From positions 1 through 20,348 of the IMG/VR virus record IMGVR_UViG_3300030390_000505: 20,348 bases of DNA, one strand, 5' to 3'. Origin of the DNA: a virus. Shown piece after piece: positions 9,448 through 20,348 of the stretch (position 1 is its first letter; every line of letters begins with the position of its first letter). The notes under the pieces are model-generated. The model ran no database searches. It saw only the letters and a program-made list of their open reading frames with translations, and was not told the origin of the DNA. The position numbers were made by a program, and so were the translations under genes.

Positions 9448-9659
9448 GTGAACCAACTTACTCAGAACAAATGCAAGAAGAACTAGAACCTATAACTAAC
9501 AAGGAAGACGGGCCGATGAACAAACGTAACCCTGTTAAAAAGAATATGGATAAGCTACACAAACCTAAGACACACACAGATAAGACTAAATACAAGCGTG
9601 TTAATAATGATTGGTCTTATGATGCTAACGGAACACCGATAACTAACGAGGAGAAGTAA
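9444..9659 (+). CDS. Small charged protein, unknown
   Basis: The 71-residue product begins MSEPTYSEQMQEELEPITNK, with a basic middle (NPVKKNMDKLHKPKTHTDKT) and an acidic end. It is probably unstructured. The frame is open upstream to an ATG at 9390, but the ATG at 9444 has the coupled ATGA overlap and an upstream AGGA. No family is recognised. Confidence 0.65.
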   Translation: MSEPTYSEQMQEELEPITNKEDGPMNKRNPVKKNMDKLHKPKTHTDKTKYKRVNNDWSYDANGTPITNEEK

Positions 9660-9660
9660 A

Positions 9661-9921
9661 GTGAAAGCAAGAACTAAAAGATATGTAATGACAGTACACA
9701 AAGGAAACTTAGCAGAAGAGTATAGACTTGACATAGTAAAAGACACCGTTAAGTTTTTTAATAAGCATACTAATAGAAAGTTTTATGTTAAATGCCACGG
9801 AAGATTTGGAAAGAACAATCCTAACTTAGCTAAGTATACTTCTTCTAATGGTCACGTTAACTGGAGTGAATGTAGATTGGAAGATGCTCAAAGAATAGAC
9901 GTATATATCCACGAAAGATAA
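9661..9921 (+). CDS. Small basic protein (GTG start), unknown
   Basis: The 86-residue product starts at GTG 9661 with GAGGAG 9 bases upstream. It is basic, with KARTKRYVMTVHKGNL at the front and a His/Gly-containing middle (FYVKCHGRFGKNNPNLAKY). One basic strand followed by NGHVNWSECRLEDAQRIDVY suggests a compact alpha/beta fold. It is the last gene before the promoter of the replication block. No family is recognised. Confidence 0.7.
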   Translation: MKARTKRYVMTVHKGNLAEEYRLDIVKDTVKFFNKHTNRKFYVKCHGRFGKNNPNLAKYTSSNGHVNWSECRLEDAQRIDVYIHER

Positions 9922-9926
9922 ACATA

Positions 9927-9956
9927 TGTTAAGAGAAGTGTTAAGATTTGTTAAGA
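9927..9956 (+). repeat. Three TGTTAAGA direct repeats upstream of a promoter
   Basis: TGTTAAGA occurs at 9927-9934, 9939-9946 and 9949-9956, that is at steps of 12 and 10 bases, about one helical turn, and ends 4 bases before the -35 box at 9961. This is the usual place for an activator, or for a repressor that bends DNA. Confidence 0.65.
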
Positions 9957-9960
9957 GCTA

Positions 9961-9989
9961 TTGACAATTTCTTAATGCTTCTTTAAACT
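9961..9989 (+). promoter_or_regulatory. Sigma70 promoter of the replication block
   Basis: A consensus TTGACA (9961-9966), a 17-base spacer and the -10 box TAAACT (9984-9989, four of six matches) predict a start near 9996, giving a leader of about 20 bases with AAGGA before the ATG at 10015. The three direct repeats just upstream suggest regulation. Confidence 0.65.
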
Positions 9990-10014
9990 CTATAGAGCCA
10001 AGAAGGAAAACAAT

Positions 10015-10314
10015 ATGAATGAAAAGAAAGTAAAAGCATTACGAAAGAAAATCAAACCTCTTCAAGTAGAATGGTTAAAGACATTGCTGAACGAAGAAGA
10101 AGCAGCACAGGTTTCTATAGATAACATAGATGAATTAGCACCTACTCAGGATTACTATATGGCTAATCGAACTATGTACCTTTCTTTTATGACACCCAAA
10201 TGGATAATGAAATATCTTAAACAGTATCCTGATATCAATTCTTTTGCAGAATTAAGTATGCACTATGAAGATTGGAGAACTAAAAATAGAGGATCTCTAA
10301 ACTGGATACAATAA
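10015..10314 (+). CDS. Protein of unknown function at the head of the replication block
   Basis: The 99-residue product begins with basic helices (MNEKKVKALRKKIKPLQVEW) followed by an acidic helix (LLNEEEAAQVS) and an aromatic region with YYMANRTMYLSFMTPKWIMK. I have the impression of similar proteins in other marine phages but cannot name a family. It is the first gene behind the regulated promoter at 9961 and is followed after 16 bases by the TonB-like gene, so it may be early and regulatory; this is inference. Confidence 0.75.
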   Translation: MNEKKVKALRKKIKPLQVEWLKTLLNEEEAAQVSIDNIDELAPTQDYYMANRTMYLSFMTPKWIMKYLKQYPDINSFAELSMHYEDWRTKNRGSLNWIQ

Positions 10315-10330
10315 ACAAAGGAGAACAAGT

Positions 10331-11125
10331 ATGTTTAAAACTATGTCAATAGCACTCGTTAGTGCTTTGTTAATAAATATTGTAGGATTAAATTTATATA
10401 ATCTACATATTGAACAACGCTTTGAAGGCCAAGTTGTTACTACTAATTATCTTAACGATAAGATTACTAAAATTAAAAGCAATATCCTGGAACTCAGAGC
10501 TGACTCGATAGGCTCTATCTCTCGTGCTGACCTTGTGGATACTCAAAACTTTATAGAGTATAAGGTATCTATGAATAAGAAAAGTGTGAATGGTTTTATT
10601 GATAGTCTTAATAAAGATATGGAACGTCTGAATGCTATATCTAATGTTAGTCAAGAGAACGATGAGTACTTACAAGAAAAGATAGAGTATCTATTACAAG
10701 AGATAGAGTTACTTCAAGATAAAATAACAGAGCCAAAAGAAATAATAGATGTGCCTGTGTTTGAACGCGAAGTAGCACCAGTAGTTGCTACACCTGTTGC
10801 TGCACCTATACCAGAAGAAACTAATACACATATAGAAGCTTATCATATTGAAGAGTGTTCTTATAAATTAGAAAGCGGTAGGCAGAATAGTACTAAAGGA
10901 ATACAACGTACAGTAGATAGCCTTAGAAAAAAAGGAACATACAATATTTCTGTATTGTTTAATATCAACACACAAGGTCAAGCAGAAGAGCTTACAGTTA
11001 AGTCTAACACTGCGCCTTCTAAGTTAGAAAGAGCTGTACAAAGATACGTTTCTAAGTTAAAATTCGTACCTAATGAAACGCTTTTATCTAAGTGTGAAAT
11101 GAGTTTTAATTTGAATGTAACATAA
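10331..11125 (+). CDS. TonB-like membrane-anchored protein
   Basis: The layout of this 264-residue protein is that of TonB. An N-terminal membrane anchor (about 4-24, SIALVSALLINIVGL) is followed by a long coiled-coil region (about 35-135, with DEYLQEKIEYLLQEIELLQD), then a Pro/Ala/Val-rich linker (about 145-162, APVVATPVAAPIPEE) and a C-terminal domain (about 190-264) reading GTYNISVLFNINTQGQAEEL, KSNTAPSKLERAVQRYVSKL and KFVPN. The last follows the TonB C-terminal pattern (strand, dGxv, S, LDxAvxxxvxxwxFxP), with L243 in place of the usual W. Cys176 and Cys255 could form a periplasmic disulfide. Its role is not clear; it might interfere with TonB-dependent receptors or act as a spanin-like or structural protein. 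AAGGAG gives a good ribosome-binding site. Gene neighbours are replication genes, so the setting does not explain it. Confidence 0.75.
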   Translation: MFKTMSIALVSALLINIVGLNLYNLHIEQRFEGQVVTTNYLNDKITKIKSNILELRADSIGSISRADLVDTQNFIEYKVSMNKKSVNGFIDSLNKDMERLNAISNVSQENDEYLQEKIEYLLQEIELLQDKITEPKEIIDVPVFEREVAPVVATPVAAPIPEETNTHIEAYHIEECSYKLESGRQNSTKGIQRTVDSLRKKGTYNISVLFNINTQGQAEELTVKSNTAPSKLERAVQRYVSKLKFVPNETLLSKCEMSFNLNVT

Positions 11126-11140
11126 ACGAGGTAATAAAAG

Positions 11141-11596
11141 ATGGCTGAAGAAAATACATTTAACGCGGGAAGTGGAGTCGGTGAAGTTACAGGTCGTGCT
11201 TACTATGCAAATGTAGTTACACCTAACACTACGTTCGATGACAAGTGGGAAGTTAGTTTAGTATTAGATGATGATACGCTAACTGATTTTGAAAACAGAG
11301 GACACCCTATAAAAGAGAAAGACTTTGGTAGGTTCGTTCACTTCAAAAGAAATGTAGAGAAGAAAGGTGGCGGTCAAAATCCACGCCCTATTCTTATTGA
11401 TGAGAATCGTAAACGTGTAGATACATTACCAAAGATGGGTAACGGATCTCTTGTTAAGATTCAGTACAACGAATACTCTTGGAGCTATCAAGGCAAGGCA
11501 GGCAAAGGTCGTGACCTTAGAGCTTTACAGCTTCTTGATTTAGTAGAGTACAATGAGCCTGATGGTGCAGGTATGTACGATGAAGGAGATTTTTAA
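11141..11596 (+). CDS. ssb: Single-stranded DNA-binding protein (T7 gp2.5-like)
   Basis: The 151-residue product binds and protects single-stranded DNA during replication and recombination. It has a beta-rich OB-fold body (TGRAYYANVV, KWEVSLVLDD, GRFVHFKRNV, SLVKIQYNEYSWSYQGKAGK), a typical GRDLRALQLLDLVEY strand near the end, and an acidic tail ending GMYDEGDF. In T7 gp2.5 such a tail with a C-terminal Phe binds the polymerase and helicase. It lies in the replication block with polymerase and primase-helicase. A GAGGT site precedes the ATG and the stop overlaps the next start (TAATG). The match to the SSB family is by pattern, not search. Confidence 0.85.
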   Translation: MAEENTFNAGSGVGEVTGRAYYANVVTPNTTFDDKWEVSLVLDDDTLTDFENRGHPIKEKDFGRFVHFKRNVEKKGGGQNPRPILIDENRKRVDTLPKMGNGSLVKIQYNEYSWSYQGKAGKGRDLRALQLLDLVEYNEPDGAGMYDEGDF

Positions 11597-11853
11597 TGGC
11601 AGAAGATACTACTAAACCTTTTGTTACTATTGATGATGTGCAGATTTCGGTAGAAGATTTACCAGAAGAAGCACAAGGTATCTTCGGTAGGCTACAAAGG
11701 TTAAATCAAAAGAAAGCAACGCTTGCATTAGATATGGAAGAGATAGACGCAAGCATTAACTTTTTTTCAAGTAGAATAATTTCTATTGTTAATTCTTCTT
11801 TAGGTCAAGGAGAGGAGGAAGAAGAAGAAGAAGCAGTTAAATCTAATAACTAA
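11596..11853 (+). CDS. Small acidic coiled-coil protein, unknown
   Basis: The 85-residue product has FVTIDDVQISVEDLPEEAQG, then a heptad-like helix (RLQRLNQKKATLALDMEEID) and a tail with seven glutamates in a row (GEEEEEEEAV). Phages carry similar small proteins with an LPEEAQ plus coiled-coil pattern next to SSB or replication genes (recalled); function unknown. AAGGAG gives a strong ribosome-binding site, and the start shares one base with the SSB stop. An intrinsic terminator follows. Confidence 0.75.
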   Translation: MAEDTTKPFVTIDDVQISVEDLPEEAQGIFGRLQRLNQKKATLALDMEEIDASINFFSSRIISIVNSSLGQGEEEEEEEAVKSNN

Positions 11854-13584: not shown

Positions 13585-15340
13585 AAAAATAATATTTGAT
13601 GTAGAAACAGACGGACTAGAAGGTAACGTAATACATTGTATAGTAACTAAAGTTATTGGGGGCGAGACACGTTTGTTTCCCCCTGATAAGTTACAGGAAG
13701 GAGTAAATCTTTTAGCCAGTGCCGATGTATTGATAGGCCATAACATCATAGGCTTTGATATCCCTGTAATTAAAAAACATTTCGATGTTACCTTGACTAA
13801 CCATATCGAAGATACTTTAGTAGTATCCCGCTTGGTTAACCCTGTACTTACAGGAGGGCATAGTTTAAGTAACTGGGGCTACCTTCTTTATCCTAATGAT
13901 GCAGAAAAAAGAAAGGCAATACAGCCAGATAGTTGGAGTGAGTATACAAAAGAAATGGGTACTTACTGTATCCAGGATGTAGAATTAAATGCAGATATAT
14001 ATTATAAGTTGTTAAAAGAAGTAGAAAGTTTTAGTCAGGAGTCTGTTGATCTTGAACATTCTATAGCTAAGATAATTAAACAACAAGAAGTTACTGGCTT
14101 TATGTTAGATGAAAAGAAAGCTACTATTCTTTCTAGTAAACTACAATCTAAGATGGCAGTGCTTGAAAAGAAAGTACACGAAACATTTAAACCTAAGTGG
14201 GTAGATGATAAACTTGTCACACCTTATATAAAAAAAGATGGAACATTATCTAAGCGCGGTCTTACTGATGATGAATACAAACAAGTATATCAAGATACAT
14301 TACATCCTAACTCTTCTGCTGAACCTTTTATGCGGCAGAAGTGGGTAGAGTTTAACCTTGCTAGTAGAAAACAAATTGGTGAATACCTTATAGACTTTGG
14401 ATGGAAACCAAAAAAGTTTACACCTACTGGTCAACCTATTGTAGATGAAAGTACACTAGAGAAAGTTAAAGATATACCAGAAGCTACACTCATTGCTGAG
14501 TTTATGATGCTTCAAAAAAGAGTAGCACAAGTTAGCTCTTGGTTAGAGTTATCTAGAGATGAAAGAGTACACGGCTTTGTTATACCTAACGGAGCTATCA
14601 CAGGTAGGATGACACATCGAAACCCTAACGTAGCTCAGACACCAAGCTCTCATAAACCTTACGGTAAAGAATGTAGAGAATGTTGGACAGTACCTAAAGG
14701 ATATAAGTTAGTAGGTATTGATGCTTCAGGTTTAGAACTTAGAGTCTTAGCACACTATATGAAAAATAAGGATTACATAAATGAAATTATCAACGGAGAT
14801 ATTCACAGCACAAATCAATCACTTGCTGGCCTTGAACAGAGAAGTCAGGCTAAAACTTTCATCTATGCCCTCATATACGGTGCAGGAAATGTTAAAATTG
14901 GAAGCGTGGTTGGTGGAAACTCAAAAGTCGGTGCAGCACTTAGAGATCGTTTCCTCAACAATCTCCCATCACTTGGAAATCTTACAGCTAGCGTTGAACG
15001 AGCAGCAAGTACACGCAAGTACCTCAAGGCATTAGATGGTAGAGTCATACACATACGGAAAGTTTATTCTTCTTTGAATACTTTATTGCAGGGTGGCGGT
15101 GCAGTTATTATGAAGACTGCTTTAGTCTTGTTAGATAATAAGATTAAAGAACTTAACCTGGATGCTAAGTTTGTAGCTAACGTACACGATGAATGGCAGA
15201 TAGAAGTTAGAGAAGATCAGGCTGAACAAGTAGGACAGCTAGGAGTACAGGCTATAGTTGATACTGCTGATGTATTAAATATGAATTGTCCTTTAGATGG
15301 TGAGTATAAAATAGGAGATAACTGGAGTGAAACACACTAA
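13532..15340 (+). CDS. Family A DNA polymerase with 3'-5' exonuclease (T7-like)
   Basis: The 602-residue replicative polymerase shows an exonuclease domain with D23 and E25 (DVETDG), D76 (HNIIGFDIP) and D149 (YCIQDVE). The polymerase domain has motif A LVGIDASGLELR (D397), motif B RSQAKTFIYALIYGAG (K441, Y445) and motif C VHDEW (552-554). The KTFIYALIYGAG segment and the DGRVIHIRKVYSSLNTLLQ stretch are close to the T7 gp5 pattern. Tyr445 takes the position of E. coli Pol I Phe762 (Tyr in T7), not the Leu seen in many marine phage polymerases. It is about 100 residues shorter than T7 gp5 (704), and I see no thioredoxin-binding insertion. AGGAAG precedes the ATG, which lies inside the primase-helicase gene. 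Confidence 0.96.
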   Translation: MKQTLISLPNRLASHRFKKIIFDVETDGLEGNVIHCIVTKVIGGETRLFPPDKLQEGVNLLASADVLIGHNIIGFDIPVIKKHFDVTLTNHIEDTLVVSRLVNPVLTGGHSLSNWGYLLYPNDAEKRKAIQPDSWSEYTKEMGTYCIQDVELNADIYYKLLKEVESFSQESVDLEHSIAKIIKQQEVTGFMLDEKKATILSSKLQSKMAVLEKKVHETFKPKWVDDKLVTPYIKKDGTLSKRGLTDDEYKQVYQDTLHPNSSAEPFMRQKWVEFNLASRKQIGEYLIDFGWKPKKFTPTGQPIVDESTLEKVKDIPEATLIAEFMMLQKRVAQVSSWLELSRDERVHGFVIPNGAITGRMTHRNPNVAQTPSSHKPYGKECRECWTVPKGYKLVGIDASGLELRVLAHYMKNKDYINEIINGDIHSTNQSLAGLEQRSQAKTFIYALIYGAGNVKIGSVVGGNSKVGAALRDRFLNNLPSLGNLTASVERAASTRKYLKALDGRVIHIRKVYSSLNTLLQGGGAVIMKTALVLLDNKIKELNLDAKFVANVHDEWQIEVREDQAEQVGQLGVQAIVDTADVLNMNCPLDGEYKIGDNWSETH

Positions 15341-15770
15341 TCAGTTAGATTTTTTTAATGAAGATTCTTATACAGAAGATACAGAAGGACATACTTGTAT
15401 TAAGTGTGAGACTTATAAAAAAACTTCAGAGTTTCCTTTTAGAGAAACAGTAGGTACATCAAGAAGATCTATATGTAGAGATTGTACTTCTATTCATACT
15501 AAGATAGTAAAAGAATTAAAACAACAGTATCCTAAACCTAATGATCCTAACTATACTTGTCCTTGTTGTGATAAGATAGAAGATGAACTAAAAGAATACG
15601 GTAGATGGCAAGACAAATCTGTTTGGGTACTAGATCACGATCATTCTACTAATACTTTTAGAGGATGGATATGTAATAACTGTAACAATGCACTAGGAAG
15701 ATTTGAAGATAATACAGAAACTTTAGATAGAGTTATAAATTATTTAAATAAACACAAGGAAAACTTATGA
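15327..15770 (+). CDS. Recombination endonuclease VII-like HNH nuclease
   Basis: The 147-residue product cleaves branched DNA such as Holliday junctions in T4 endonuclease VII relatives. The core is TCPCCDK (C78, C80, C81), VLDHDHST (D103-H106) and FRGWICNNCNNALG (C116, C119, N120), a typical zinc-stabilised beta-beta-alpha-metal site. An extra CxxC pair of pairs (C24/C27, C50/C53) precedes it, as in many phage homologues. The start is GTG 15327, 14 bases inside the polymerase gene, with GGAG upstream. It overlaps the exonuclease gene by ATGA. The local context (polymerase, exonuclease, endonuclease I) fits DNA metabolism and genome processing. Confidence 0.93.
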   Translation: MKHTNQLDFFNEDSYTEDTEGHTCIKCETYKKTSEFPFRETVGTSRRSICRDCTSIHTKIVKELKQQYPKPNDPNYTCPCCDKIEDELKEYGRWQDKSVWVLDHDHSTNTFRGWICNNCNNALGRFEDNTETLDRVINYLNKHKENL

Positions 15771-17390: not shown

Positions 17391-17681
17391 ATGATAGGTA
17401 GATTACTGTATATGATACCTTTCTTTGGTATGTTCATAGGCGCATATTTTATGTGGACTGCCGATATAAAAGCAGCAATTATAATGGCAGGATTAGGACT
17501 AACACAAAGCTTAATATGTTTTATTTATCTTATAATACAAATTATAGTTAACGGAACAGACGGAACACTAGCAGTAGAAGTAGAACTATGGGATGCGGTA
17601 ATGCCTATCATATTCTTAATGTTATCTTTTACAATATTTTTATTACTAACAACACAACTTGCAGAGACATTTTTAATATGA
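17391..17681 (+). CDS. Three-helix membrane protein
   Basis: The 96-residue product has three hydrophobic segments: about 4-22 (RLLYMIPFFGMFIGAYFM), 27-53 (AAIIMAGLGLTQSLICFIYL and on) and 67-93 (WDAVMPIIFLMLSFTIFLLL). There is no signal peptide and little charge. The size and topology fit a class I holin or another small inner-membrane protein, but no family is recognised and no lysin lies next to it. The stop overlaps the ribonucleotide reductase start (ATGA). The ribosome-binding site is weak (GGAATAA). Confidence 0.72.
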   Translation: MIGRLLYMIPFFGMFIGAYFMWTADIKAAIIMAGLGLTQSLICFIYLIIQIIVNGTDGTLAVEVELWDAVMPIIFLMLSFTIFLLLTTQLAETFLI

Positions 17682-19609
17682 ACATAGAAAAAAATAACGT
17701 AGGACTACCTACAAACTACCAGCAATTTATACATCTTAGTAGGTATGCTAGATGGAATGAAGATAAGAAACGTAGAGAGACTTGGGATGAAACAGTAGCT
17801 CGATACTTTGATTTCTTTGAGAAACATTTAAAAGAAAACCATAACGTAGATAACATTACTTGGCCATCCGTTAGAAAACATTTAGAAGATAGTGTGCTTT
17901 CGTTAGACATTATGCCTAGTATGAGAGCATTGATGTCAGCAGGTAAAGCATTAGAACAGGATAACGTAGCAGGATTTAACTGTAGCTATGTAGCTGTTGA
18001 TACACCTAGAGCCTTTGATGAAACATTGTACATACTTATGTGCGGTACTGGTGTAGGCTTTAGTGTAGAGCGACAGTATGTTAATCAGCTTCCTGATTTA
18101 CCTGAAGAACTACACAAGACAGATACTATTATTAAAGTAGCTGACTCTAAAATAGGGTGGGCTAAATCTTACAAAGAAATGTTATCGTTACTTTACTCAG
18201 GTCAAATACCTACTTGGGATGTGTCTAACATAAGACCTTATGGAGCTAGGCTTAAAACATTTGGTGGTCGTGCCAGTGGCCCTGCTCCTTTAGAAGAGTT
18301 GTTTGAGTTTACTATTAATATATTTAAAGATGCTTTAGAAAAAGGACAGCGTAAGTTAGTCTCTATTAACTGCCACGATTTAATGTGTAAGATTGCAGAG
18401 GTAGTAGTAGTAGGTGGAGTAAGACGTAGTGCTTTAATCTCTCTTAGTAACCTATCAGATAACCGTATGCGTAACGCTAAGTCAGGTGCTTGGTGGGAAG
18501 ATAATCAGCAACGTGCGTTATCTAATAACTCTGTAGCCTATACAGATGCTGCAGAAACTGGTGCGTTTATGCGTGAATGGTTGTCTCTGTACGAGTCTAA
18601 GAGCGGTGAACGTGGTATGTTTAATCGTCAGGCTGCAGAGAAACAGGCAGCTAAAAATGGTAGACGAGAAGAGTATACAGACTATGGTACTAATCCTTGT
18701 AGTGAAATCATTCTACGGAACAAACAGTTCTGTAATCTAACTGAGGTTGTAGTTAGACCTGATGATACTATGGCATCTTTAAGAACTAAAGTTGAAGCAG
18801 CTACTATACTTGGTACGTTCCAGGCTACGCTAACAAACTTTAGATACCTGACAAGTAAATGGAAATACAACACACAAGAAGAATCTTTGCTTGGTGTTTC
18901 TCTTACAGGTATAATGGATAACATTGATATGATAAATGGTAAGATAGACTTAGAATATTTAAAGAACTTATCTGTATCAATTAATAAAGTATGGGCTAAG
19001 AAGTTAGGTATCCCCCAATCTGCAGCGATTACCTGCGTTAAACCTAGCGGAACAGTAAGTCAACTGGTCAATAGTGCTTCTGGTATTCACACTAGACATA
19101 GCCCATACTACCTTCGTACTATCCGTGCTGATAAAAAAGATCCGTTAGCTAGACTAATGGTCGATGCAGGTGTGTATTATGAAGATGATGTAACTAAACC
19201 AGAACATACTTATGTATTCTATTTTCCTATCAAGAGTCCTAAAGGCTCACTTACTAGAAAAGACTTTACAGCTATTGAGCATTTAAAAATCTGGAAAGAG
19301 TATCAAGATAAATGGTGTGAACACAAACCTTCTGTCACTATCTCTGTTAAAGAAAACGAATGGATGGAAGTAGGTGCGTGGGTACATAAGAACTTTGATG
19401 ATGTCTCTGGTATATCCTTCTTACCTTTCTCAGATCACTCTTATAAGCAAGCTCCTTATCAAGAGATAACTTACAATGAGTATCGTAGTTGGTTAAAGAA
19501 AACTACAGACACGGTAGATTGGTCAAAGATTACTGAGTATGAAACAGAAGATATGACTGAGAATACTAAAGAACTTGCTTGTGCTGCAGGTACTTGTGAG
19601 ATTATTTAA
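17678..19609 (+). CDS. nrdJ: Ribonucleotide reductase class II, adenosylcobalamin-dependent (monomeric type)
   Basis: The 643-residue enzyme turns ribonucleotides into deoxyribonucleotides. Key residues are C102 (FNCSYVA), N339 and C341 with E343 in NPCSEIIL, C352 (KQFCNLTE), and a C-terminal redox pair in CAAGTC (C635, C640). Spacing CxxxxC at the end and the CGTGVGFSVER stretch (122-132) match the Lactobacillus leichmannii-type monomeric class II enzyme (C119, N406, C408, E410, C419, C731, C736), which is slightly longer (739). No small radical subunit is needed; the 5'-deoxyadenosyl radical comes from vitamin B12, so the phage depends on cobalamin in the host. The ATG at 17678 overlaps the previous stop; an upstream in-frame ATG at 17588 would add 30 residues unrelated to the family. 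Confidence 0.96.
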   Translation: MNIEKNNVGLPTNYQQFIHLSRYARWNEDKKRRETWDETVARYFDFFEKHLKENHNVDNITWPSVRKHLEDSVLSLDIMPSMRALMSAGKALEQDNVAGFNCSYVAVDTPRAFDETLYILMCGTGVGFSVERQYVNQLPDLPEELHKTDTIIKVADSKIGWAKSYKEMLSLLYSGQIPTWDVSNIRPYGARLKTFGGRASGPAPLEELFEFTINIFKDALEKGQRKLVSINCHDLMCKIAEVVVVGGVRRSALISLSNLSDNRMRNAKSGAWWEDNQQRALSNNSVAYTDAAETGAFMREWLSLYESKSGERGMFNRQAAEKQAAKNGRREEYTDYGTNPCSEIILRNKQFCNLTEVVVRPDDTMASLRTKVEAATILGTFQATLTNFRYLTSKWKYNTQEESLLGVSLTGIMDNIDMINGKIDLEYLKNLSVSINKVWAKKLGIPQSAAITCVKPSGTVSQLVNSASGIHTRHSPYYLRTIRADKKDPLARLMVDAGVYYEDDVTKPEHTYVFYFPIKSPKGSLTRKDFTAIEHLKIWKEYQDKWCEHKPSVTISVKENEWMEVGAWVHKNFDDVSGISFLPFSDHSYKQAPYQEITYNEYRSWLKKTTDTVDWSKITEYETEDMTENTKELACAAGTCEII

Positions 19610-19836
19610 TGGGTAGAATAAAAAGGGAAGAAGCAAAACTGTTAGGCTATAAAGTTTTGTTTAACAAACAAGGACAGTTGATTACTGAAAGAACAACTAC
19701 AGACATTACCGTGTTAGCTAAACAATTAACTAAAGAAGACTTTAACCTACTACAGTCGACAGTAAGAAGCGCAACAAGAGAACTAGACGCAGTACATAAT
19801 AAAATAGAAGCGGATTTAAATGCTCGTAAATCTTAA
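19609..19836 (+). CDS. Small helical protein, unknown
   Basis: The 75-residue product begins MGRIKREEAKLLGYKVLFNK and is mainly helical at the end (RSATRELDAVHNKIEADLNA). Its start shares one base with the reductase stop (TAATG), so it is coupled. It is the last gene of the rightward block, and its TAA stop overlaps the stop of the leftward gene at 19833. No family is recognised. Confidence 0.7.
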   Translation: MGRIKREEAKLLGYKVLFNKQGQLITERTTTDITVLAKQLTKEDFNLLQSTVRSATRELDAVHNKIEADLNARKS

Positions 19837-20348
19837 CTTCCTTGTTTAATATTAATAGTAGAAGAGCTACCACCGTTAGTAGTTATTTGATTTACTTTTC
19901 CTTCTTGCTCAATGCGTATGTTATATGAGCCATCTTTAGGTACTTGTATTTCCATAGCATCTTCTATCTGACGTAAGAATTTTAAGTTAACAGCCGTAAC
20001 AAAAGTACTAATCTGTGTATCACCATCATAACCCATAGCTGTACCTTTAACTCCGTCTGCTGACAGAGCTTTATCTGCTTTACCTAGCTCATCTATTTCC
20101 TGGATTACATCAAGCAAATCTTCTAAGAAATTTCCTGCAAGATAATCTATGTCCAGCTCTTGATACTCTAAATCATCTTGGGCTAAGTCATCCTGTTCTA
20201 GTTCGTCAAACTCAAGGAAGTCTACGTCAAGTACGTTACCTGCAGCCGCAGTAGTCTCTGTAGTCTCTATAGTTTTAGTTTCAGGGGGGTTGACAATTAG
20301 CATATTGTCTATCATATCTAGTGTTAGGTCTAGTATAACTGAAGGACT
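19833..20348 (-). CDS. Phage protein of unknown function, 5' end outside window
   Basis: The frame is open from the right edge. An ATG at 20315 would give 160 residues, but the 11 codons before it (SPSVILDLTLD) have no stop and no ribosome-binding site lies before that ATG, so the gene probably starts beyond the window. The product has an acidic middle (FLEFDELEQDDLAQDDLEYQ), a central domain (MGYDGDTQISTFVTAVNLKF) and a strand-rich end with EQEGKVNQITTN and TINIKQGS, a repeat-like pattern of short beta strands. I think similar proteins occur in marine phage late regions, perhaps virion proteins, but this is recall only. It reads leftward, as the terminase operon does. Confidence 0.72.
   Translation of the reverse strand, partial: SPSVILDLTLDMIDNMLIVNPPETKTIETTETTAAAGNVLDVDFLEFDELEQDDLAQDDLEYQELDIDYLAGNFLEDLLDVIQEIDELGKADKALSADGVKGTAMGYDGDTQISTFVTAVNLKFLRQIEDAMEIQVPKDGSYNIRIEQEGKVNQITTNGGSSSTINIKQGS

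What the first reader, a model, noticed from the sequence alone, without database searches (positions are those of the whole stretch)
10331..11125. Phage-encoded TonB-like protein
Membrane anchor, coiled coil, Pro/Ala-rich linker and a C-terminal TonB-type domain are seen in one chain. Phages often use TonB-dependent receptors, so a phage TonB mimic could block superinfection by competing with host TonB, or serve nutrient uptake during infection. The coiled coil and the two cysteines are not typical of host TonB. I have not seen such a gene inside a T7-like replication block.
Basis: partly seen in the sequence, partly recalled or inferred. Interest (0 to 1): 0.7.

Follow-up and report, generated by a model that had tools for sequence, protein, structure and literature searches.

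The report
Phage membrane protein with TonB-like tail
A group of uncultured marine viruses of bacteria all carry a fast-changing gene for a membrane-anchored protein whose tail folds like the bacterial energy-transfer protein TonB but lacks TonB's motor-binding motif, so it is probably an unpowered mimic that grips a partner in the cell envelope during infection.

Summary
ORF 10331-11125 (264 aa) is a real, selected gene: N-terminal membrane anchor, about 110 residues of mostly predicted helix, a short Pro/Val/Glu/Ala linker and a C-terminal domain that AlphaFold folds as alpha-beta-beta-alpha-beta. All 17 top-ranked solved structures are TonB C-terminal domains; TolA ranks lower. Sequence models agree weakly (Pfam TonB_C E = 1.2e-4, below cut-off). 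The heptad coiled coil was not confirmed. The phage resembles SAR11 phages HTVC103P/104P/115P and HMO-2011, not true T7.

New facts: the gene is core, directly upstream of the SSB gene in all 40 readable related contigs, yet the fastest-changing gene of the block (40-62% identity in distant members while neighbours are mostly 80-90%). Alleles, even the C-terminal domain alone, are swapped between near-identical phages. Two cysteines and the last beta strand, the strand TonB uses to hold its partner, are nearly invariant. The TonB/TolA motor motif (SxxxH) is absent from every full-length member tested.

Best reading: an unpowered TonB mimic that captures an envelope partner by beta-strand addition, probably for superinfection exclusion (function inferred, about 0.4). 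An active TonB is unlikely; a spanin is less likely. Partner and host are unknown. The known precedent is the lambdoid TonB_C lipoprotein of phi21.

The parts
10331..11125 (+). gene for the 264-aa membrane-anchored TonB-CTD-like protein
   Evidence: homologues
10318..10323 (+). Shine-Dalgarno-like AAGGAG
   Evidence: read from sequence
10340..10399 (+). N-terminal membrane anchor, residues 4-23; no SxxxH motor motif, no lipobox, no obvious cleavage site
   Evidence: hydropathy 1.9; motif test
10403..10732 (+). predicted helical region, residues 25-134; residues 70-100 strongly conserved; heptad coiled coil not confirmed
10733..10840 (+). variable Pro/Val/Glu/Ala linker, residues 135-170, differs in length between alleles
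10841..11122 (+). C-terminal TonB-CTD-like domain, residues 171-264 (a1 189-197, b1 202-212, b2 217-225, a2 230-242, b3 252-263)
10856..10858 (+). invariant Cys176
11093..11095 (+). invariant Cys255 in strand b3
11084..11122 (+). strand b3 and free C-terminus, most conserved element; the equivalent strand of TonB pairs with the TonB box (established knowledge)
   Evidence: majority frequency 0.86; b-strand addition as the TolA/TonB CTD binding mode in PMC12204202
10015..10314 (+). upstream neighbour (phrog_37981, unknown function), conserved in synteny
11141..11596 (+). downstream neighbour, gp2.5-like SSB; gene pair conserved in 40/40 readable contigs

Best explanation
The gene makes a type II inner-membrane protein. 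It is anchored by one N-terminal helix, spans part of the periplasm with a mostly helical stalk and a short flexible linker, and ends in a domain with the fold of the TonB C-terminal domain (fold: well supported, about 0.9). It lacks the motor-binding motif of TonB and TolA, so it probably cannot be powered by ExbBD or TolQR; it would be an unpowered mimic. The most likely action is capture of an envelope partner (a TonB-box-bearing receptor or a Tol-type partner) by beta-strand addition to its nearly invariant last strand, which would lock that partner and protect the infected cell from further phages or otherwise remodel the envelope during replication. Shown here: the fold (predicted), the missing motif, core presence and synteny, and allele swapping. 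Inferred: expression with the replication genes, periplasmic orientation, a C176-C255 disulfide, the partner, and the exclusion role.
For: AlphaFold2 without templates gives alpha-beta-beta-alpha-beta at pLDDT about 80-92. Foldseek ranks 17 TonB CTD chains first; 2gsk_B (TonB bound to BtuB) has E 1.9e-3, probability 1.00, rmsd 1.8 A over 63 columns, target TM 0.65; TolA appears only from rank 18-19. Pfam TonB_C E 1.2e-4, NCBIfam tonB_Cterm 2.2e-3, AgmX/PglI C-terminal domain 3.8e-3. hhalign of 25 members against alphaproteobacterial TonB scores 27.9 against a shuffle maximum of 18.0; against SAR11 TolA it is no better than shuffles. No SxxxH in any full-length member tested. Strand b3 is the most conserved segment. 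The gene is core: 40 of 40 readable SSB loci. It is the fastest-evolving gene of the block in distant members, and the C-terminal domain is swapped as a unit: L009 carries a window-like stalk (96-97% nt) and the L017 domain (99.3% nt), while L017's flanks are mostly 92-100% identical to the window. Precedents: phage periplasmic protein Llp jams the TonB-dependent receptor FhuA (PMC9586334); phi21 encodes a TonB_C lipoprotein.
Against: No partner, no expression and no phenotype data. The host is unknown; if SAR11, no TonB was found (0/148) and only 35/148 genomes have a plug-domain receptor. Being core in every member is unusual for an optional exclusion gene. Sequence similarity to TonB is below curated cut-offs, and several members (L017, L018, L019) do not hit TonB_C at all. 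Some neighbouring genes (endonuclease VII, the small gene after SSB) are also swapped between relatives, so mosaicism alone does not prove an arms race.
Confidence: 0.4

Rival explanations
1. Spanin-like lysis protein: an inner-membrane i-spanin whose helical stalk, cysteines and C-terminal domain bridge to the outer membrane and help disrupt it at lysis.
For: Anchor, helical stalk and conserved cysteines match i-spanin features (PMC6139136: 507 of 528 two-component spanins have a cysteine). Core gene. In the relative HTVC115P two lysozyme genes sit near the SSB gene.
Against: No lipobox ORF (o-spanin candidate) anywhere in the window on either strand by the scan used. In relatives the GH24 lysozyme and small membrane proteins lie in the late minus-strand region, not here. 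The PHROG label 'Rz-like spanin' for TonB_C proteins belongs to phi21-type lipoproteins, and phi21 has separate i- and o-spanins.
Confidence: 0.15
2. TolA mimic: the domain competes with host TolA and interferes with Tol-Pal, the one motor-driven system of this kind found in SAR11.
For: TolA and TonB share topology and bind partners by strand addition (PMC12204202). 30 of 30 SAR11 genomes tested have a TolA. TolA CTDs appear in the Foldseek list (from rank 18).
Against: Foldseek and profile comparison both prefer TonB; no signal against SAR11 TolA. Cysteines are placed differently from SAR11 TolA.
Confidence: 0.12
3. Working TonB substitute for nutrient import, for example vitamin B12 for the phage's B12-dependent ribonucleotide reductase.
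For: Class II RNR in the same block. Some SAR11 genomes have one TonB-dependent-type receptor but no Pfam TonB.
Against: No SxxxH motor motif in any full-length member tested; the YP motif ahead of strand b1 is not at the TonB position (by eye).
Confidence: 0.06
4. Periplasmic partner of the phage's own curli-type secretion genes (CsgG, CsgF and curlin-like proteins) found in the late region of relatives.
For: Late regions of the three relatives read there carry CsgG-like and CsgF-like genes; CsgG (1.7e-44 and 8.2e-54) and CsgF (1.3e-18) were confirmed by Pfam in two and one of them. The window's own right end is the end of a protein of that module.
Against: Opposite strand, late region; HTVC008M and Melnitz have CsgG but no relative of this protein. 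Curli secretion needs no TonB-like part (established knowledge).
Confidence: 0.07

Closest known systems
TonB (E. coli and relatives; Pfam PF03544 TonB_C)
   Same: N-terminal inner-membrane anchor, periplasmic spacer, C-terminal alpha-beta-beta-alpha-beta domain; last strand kept
   Different: No SxxxH motor motif; helical rather than Pro-rich main spacer; two invariant cysteines; no YP motif at the usual place; below Pfam cut-off
TolA
   Same: Anchor, helical domain II, TonB-related C-terminal domain; SAR11 TolA also has a cysteine pair
   Different: No SxxxH; lower structural ranking; no profile match to SAR11 TolA; cysteines placed differently
Lambdoid phage TonB_C lipoproteins (phi21 CPT_21_73, phrog_1267)
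   Same: Phage-encoded TonB C-terminal domain, probably periplasmic
   Different: About 108 aa, lipid-anchored by a lipobox cysteine, no helical stalk, clear Pfam hit (7e-13); lies near bor and the lysis genes rather than in the replication block
T5 Llp / phi80 and T1 Cor superinfection-exclusion lipoproteins
   Same: Proposed function: phage periplasmic protein jamming a TonB-dependent receptor
   Different: Small lipoproteins, not known as TonB folds; Llp binds the receptor plug, not the TonB box (PMC9586334)
i-spanins (Rz family)
   Same: N-terminal anchor, helical stalk, cysteines
   Different: No o-spanin candidate nearby; globular TonB-like end; gene not in the lysis region

Membership tests
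TonB protein family | C-terminal domain of TonB fold | tested here: met
   AlphaFold2 and Foldseek, (prediction, not a solved structure)
TonB protein family | Score above the curated Pfam TonB_C cut-off (24.6 bits) or NCBIfam tonB_Cterm (27.1) | tested here: not met
   20.5 / 22.9 and 18.3 bits
TonB protein family | SxxxH (SHLS) motor-binding motif in the anchor helix | tested here: not met
   absent in all full-length members tested; present in SAR11 TolA and several alphaproteobacterial TonBs
TonB protein family | Binds TonB boxes of outer-membrane receptors and transduces proton-motive force | not testable with these tools
   needs binding and uptake assays
TolA | Profile similarity to TolA domain III | tested here: not met
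   hhalign no better than shuffles, (SAR11 TolA only)
Two-component i-spanin | Partner o-spanin lipoprotein embedded, overlapping or adjacent | tested here: not met
   no lipobox ORF in the window; the rest of the genome is not in hand
Two-component i-spanin | N-terminal anchor with periplasmic coiled coil | tested here: inconclusive
   anchor yes; helix at low confidence and heptad p = 0.33
Lambdoid phage TonB_C lipoproteins (phrog_1267) | Lipobox and match to phrog_1267 | tested here: not met
   no lipobox; P0001 has no phrog_1267 hit
HMO-2011/HTVC103P-type phages (the genome) | TerL, PolA and primase closest to this group, similar gene order | tested here: met
   TerL 61-65%, PolA 48-50%, primase 43-44% to HTVC115P/103P/104P

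The most novel reading that the evidence does not exclude
A lineage of marine phages has made a powerless TonB into a core infection protein: its swappable C-terminal domain is matched by beta-strand addition to an envelope partner of the host, possibly the lone TonB-dependent-type receptor that some SAR11 genomes carry without any recognisable TonB, so as to exclude rivals or to control uptake (perhaps of B12, which the phage's reductase needs).
Probability: 0.1. Interest if true: 0.85.

Novelty: new variant of a known kind. Interest (0 to 1): 0.55.

Why it matters
It would add a family of virus-encoded TonB-like proteins, found in many marine contigs, to the few phage factors known to act on envelope energy-transfer systems. 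It makes a clear question testable: can a TonB domain without its motor be used by a phage as a lock? It also points to how marine phages of unknown host may control the cell envelope during infection.

Tried and rejected
Chance ORF or artefact: rejected (dozens of intact homologues, purifying selection). Close relatives in 50,697 phage records: none by tblastn. Close relatives in the genome collection: none; the domain profile gave only two marginal hits in 289 alphaproteobacterial genomes. Viral structure library BFVD: no TonB-like match, best probability about 0.25. PHROGs: only weak hits, mostly to the helical region. Host by phage fragments in SAR11 genomes: TerL search of 397 Pelagibacterales genomes empty. 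PDB sequence search: nothing meaningful. My first reading that SAR11 lacks receptors altogether (0 of 10; PMC3400609) was corrected by the larger sample: 35 of 148 genomes have a plug-domain receptor. The PHROG 'Rz-like spanin' hit of TonB domains first suggested a spanin, but that PHROG turned out to hold the phi21 TonB_C lipoprotein. Heptad coiled coil: not significant. A recalled TonB-like PRD1 spanin could not be supported from the papers held and was dropped.

Full report
What is there. The ORF at 10331-11125 is a 264-aa protein with a good ribosome-binding site, 16 bases after a small conserved gene and 15 bases before an SSB gene. Residues 4-23 are hydrophobic; there is no lipobox and no obvious cleavage site, so an uncleaved anchor with the rest in the periplasm is the likely topology (inference). 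AlphaFold2 on a 14-member alignment predicts helices at 38-60, 65-106 and 111-132 at low confidence and a well-scored C-terminal domain with the order helix-strand-strand-helix-strand. A second run on the domain alone gives the same (mean pLDDT 79, pTM 0.72).

Is it TonB-like? Foldseek against the PDB returns TonB C-terminal domains (TonB, FusB, HasB) at ranks 1-17 in both runs, including TonB bound to BtuB and to FhuA, with TolA domains after them. E-values are modest (best 1.4e-3 to 1.9e-3), as expected for a small, diverged domain (about 14% identity). Three curated sequence models for TonB-type domains are the top hits, all below their cut-offs. A profile of 25 family members aligned with 16 alphaproteobacterial TonB domains scores 27.9 (E 1.5e-4), against a maximum of 18.0 for 100 column shuffles; the same profile against SAR11 TolA is no better than shuffles. 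I take the fold as about 0.9 likely. Formal membership in Pfam TonB_C is not met.

What is missing. TonB and TolA bind their motors through an SHLS motif in the anchor helix (PMC12204202). No full-length family member tested has SxxxH, while SAR11 TolA and several alphaproteobacterial TonBs do. An energised TonB is therefore unlikely.

The phage. TerL (61-65%), PolA (48-50%) and primase (43-44%) are closest to SAR11 phages HTVC115P, 103P and 104P; the class II ribonucleotide reductase is closest to HMO-2011. GC is 35.3%, at the upper end of the range reported for the SAR11-type subgroups of the HMO-2011-type phages (31.9-35.4%, PMC9038755). The host is not proven. None of the three nearest isolates has a detectable relative of this protein; HTVC115P has lysozyme genes near that slot, and 103P/104P have a gene annotated as lysine-acyltransferase there.

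The family. Searches of IMG/VR gave close and distant members. A separate search with the neighbouring SSB gene gave 46 loci; in all 40 with readable upstream sequence the gene lies directly upstream (in L260 with one frameshift). It is thus a core gene of this lineage. It is also the fastest-changing one among distant members: for example 41% identity in L216, where the upstream neighbour is 87%, SSB 81% and primase 90%. Contig L017 is mostly 92-100% identical in DNA to the window on both sides, while the gene itself drops to 51-82%. In L009 the stalk is 96-97% identical to the window but the C-terminal domain drops to 70-86% and is 99.3% identical to that of L017. So the domain is exchanged as a module. 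Within the protein, helix 70-100 and the last strand are the most conserved parts, and C176 and C255 are invariant.

How it may work. The conserved last strand corresponds to the one by which TonB holds the TonB box (established knowledge); TolA and TonB both bind by strand addition (PMC12204202). A phage protein anchored in the inner membrane, with that strand but without motor coupling, would hold a partner without moving it. Phage proteins that jam TonB-dependent receptors from the periplasm are established for T5 Llp (PMC9586334), and lambdoid phages such as phi21 encode lipid-anchored TonB_C proteins. Swapping of the domain fits a part that must match a variable partner. Against a simple exclusion gene stands its presence in every member. 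The partner cannot be named: in 148 Pelagibacterales genomes no Pfam TonB was found, 35 have one plug-domain receptor, at least one of which (L272) has a TonB-box-like N-terminus by eye, and TolA was present in 30 of 30 tested.

Rivals. A spanin is disfavoured by the lack of any lipobox ORF in the window and by a lysozyme and small membrane proteins in the late region of relatives. A TolA mimic is possible but less similar. A working nutrient TonB is disfavoured by the motif test. A link to the phage's curli-type genes is speculative.

Limits. Two structure runs, no complex prediction, no coordinates to measure the cysteine distance, no host, no expression data. Statements on function are inference.

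Noticed in passing
window 19833-20315 (-); L269:313-2279, L270:5753-9622, L271:10135-12000: Relatives carry a curli-type module in the late region: CsgG (1.7e-44, 8.2e-54), CsgF (1.3e-18), curlin-like repeat proteins and a FecR-domain protein; the window's right end is the C-terminal end of a protein of this module. Similar CsgG genes are annotated in HTVC008M and Melnitz phages.
   Followed up: partly
L205:3917-4243 (phi21) and PHROGs phrog_1267: PHROG 1267 is labelled 'Rz-like spanin', but phi21's member is a TonB_C lipoprotein (Pfam 7e-13) and phi21 has separate spanins; the label looks wrong.
   Followed up: partly
L272, L275-L277 (Pelagibacterales genomes): 35 of 148 SAR11-order genomes have a single plug-domain (TonB-dependent-type) receptor, yet none has a Pfam TonB; in three loci a small membrane-protein gene follows directly and no TonB is adjacent. 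What powers the receptor is unclear.
   Followed up: partly
window 17588-19609 (+): B12-dependent (class II) ribonucleotide reductase, closest to HMO-2011 (63.9%), although HTVC115P, one of the nearest phages by terminase, has an alpha/beta-subunit enzyme there.
   Followed up: no
window 15327-15770 and 11596-11853: Endonuclease VII and the small gene after SSB are replaced by distant alleles (30-44%) in some otherwise 80-98% identical relatives.
   Followed up: no
window 15298-15340: 43 bases at the end of PolA are 93% identical to Pelagibacter phage HTVC142P, the only near-identity DNA match of the window in the phage collection.
   Followed up: no
L260:1-723: Adenylate/guanylate-cyclase-like ORF (by eye) close upstream of the TonB-like gene in one relative; the TonB-like gene there has one frameshift.
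   Followed up: no
window 17391-17681 (+): 96-aa membrane protein of unknown family just before the reductase, conserved in relatives.
   Followed up: no
HTVC104P 9830-10279, HTVC103P 9458-9907: Genes annotated as toxin-activating lysine-acyltransferase lie near the SSB gene in the nearest isolates.
   Followed up: no
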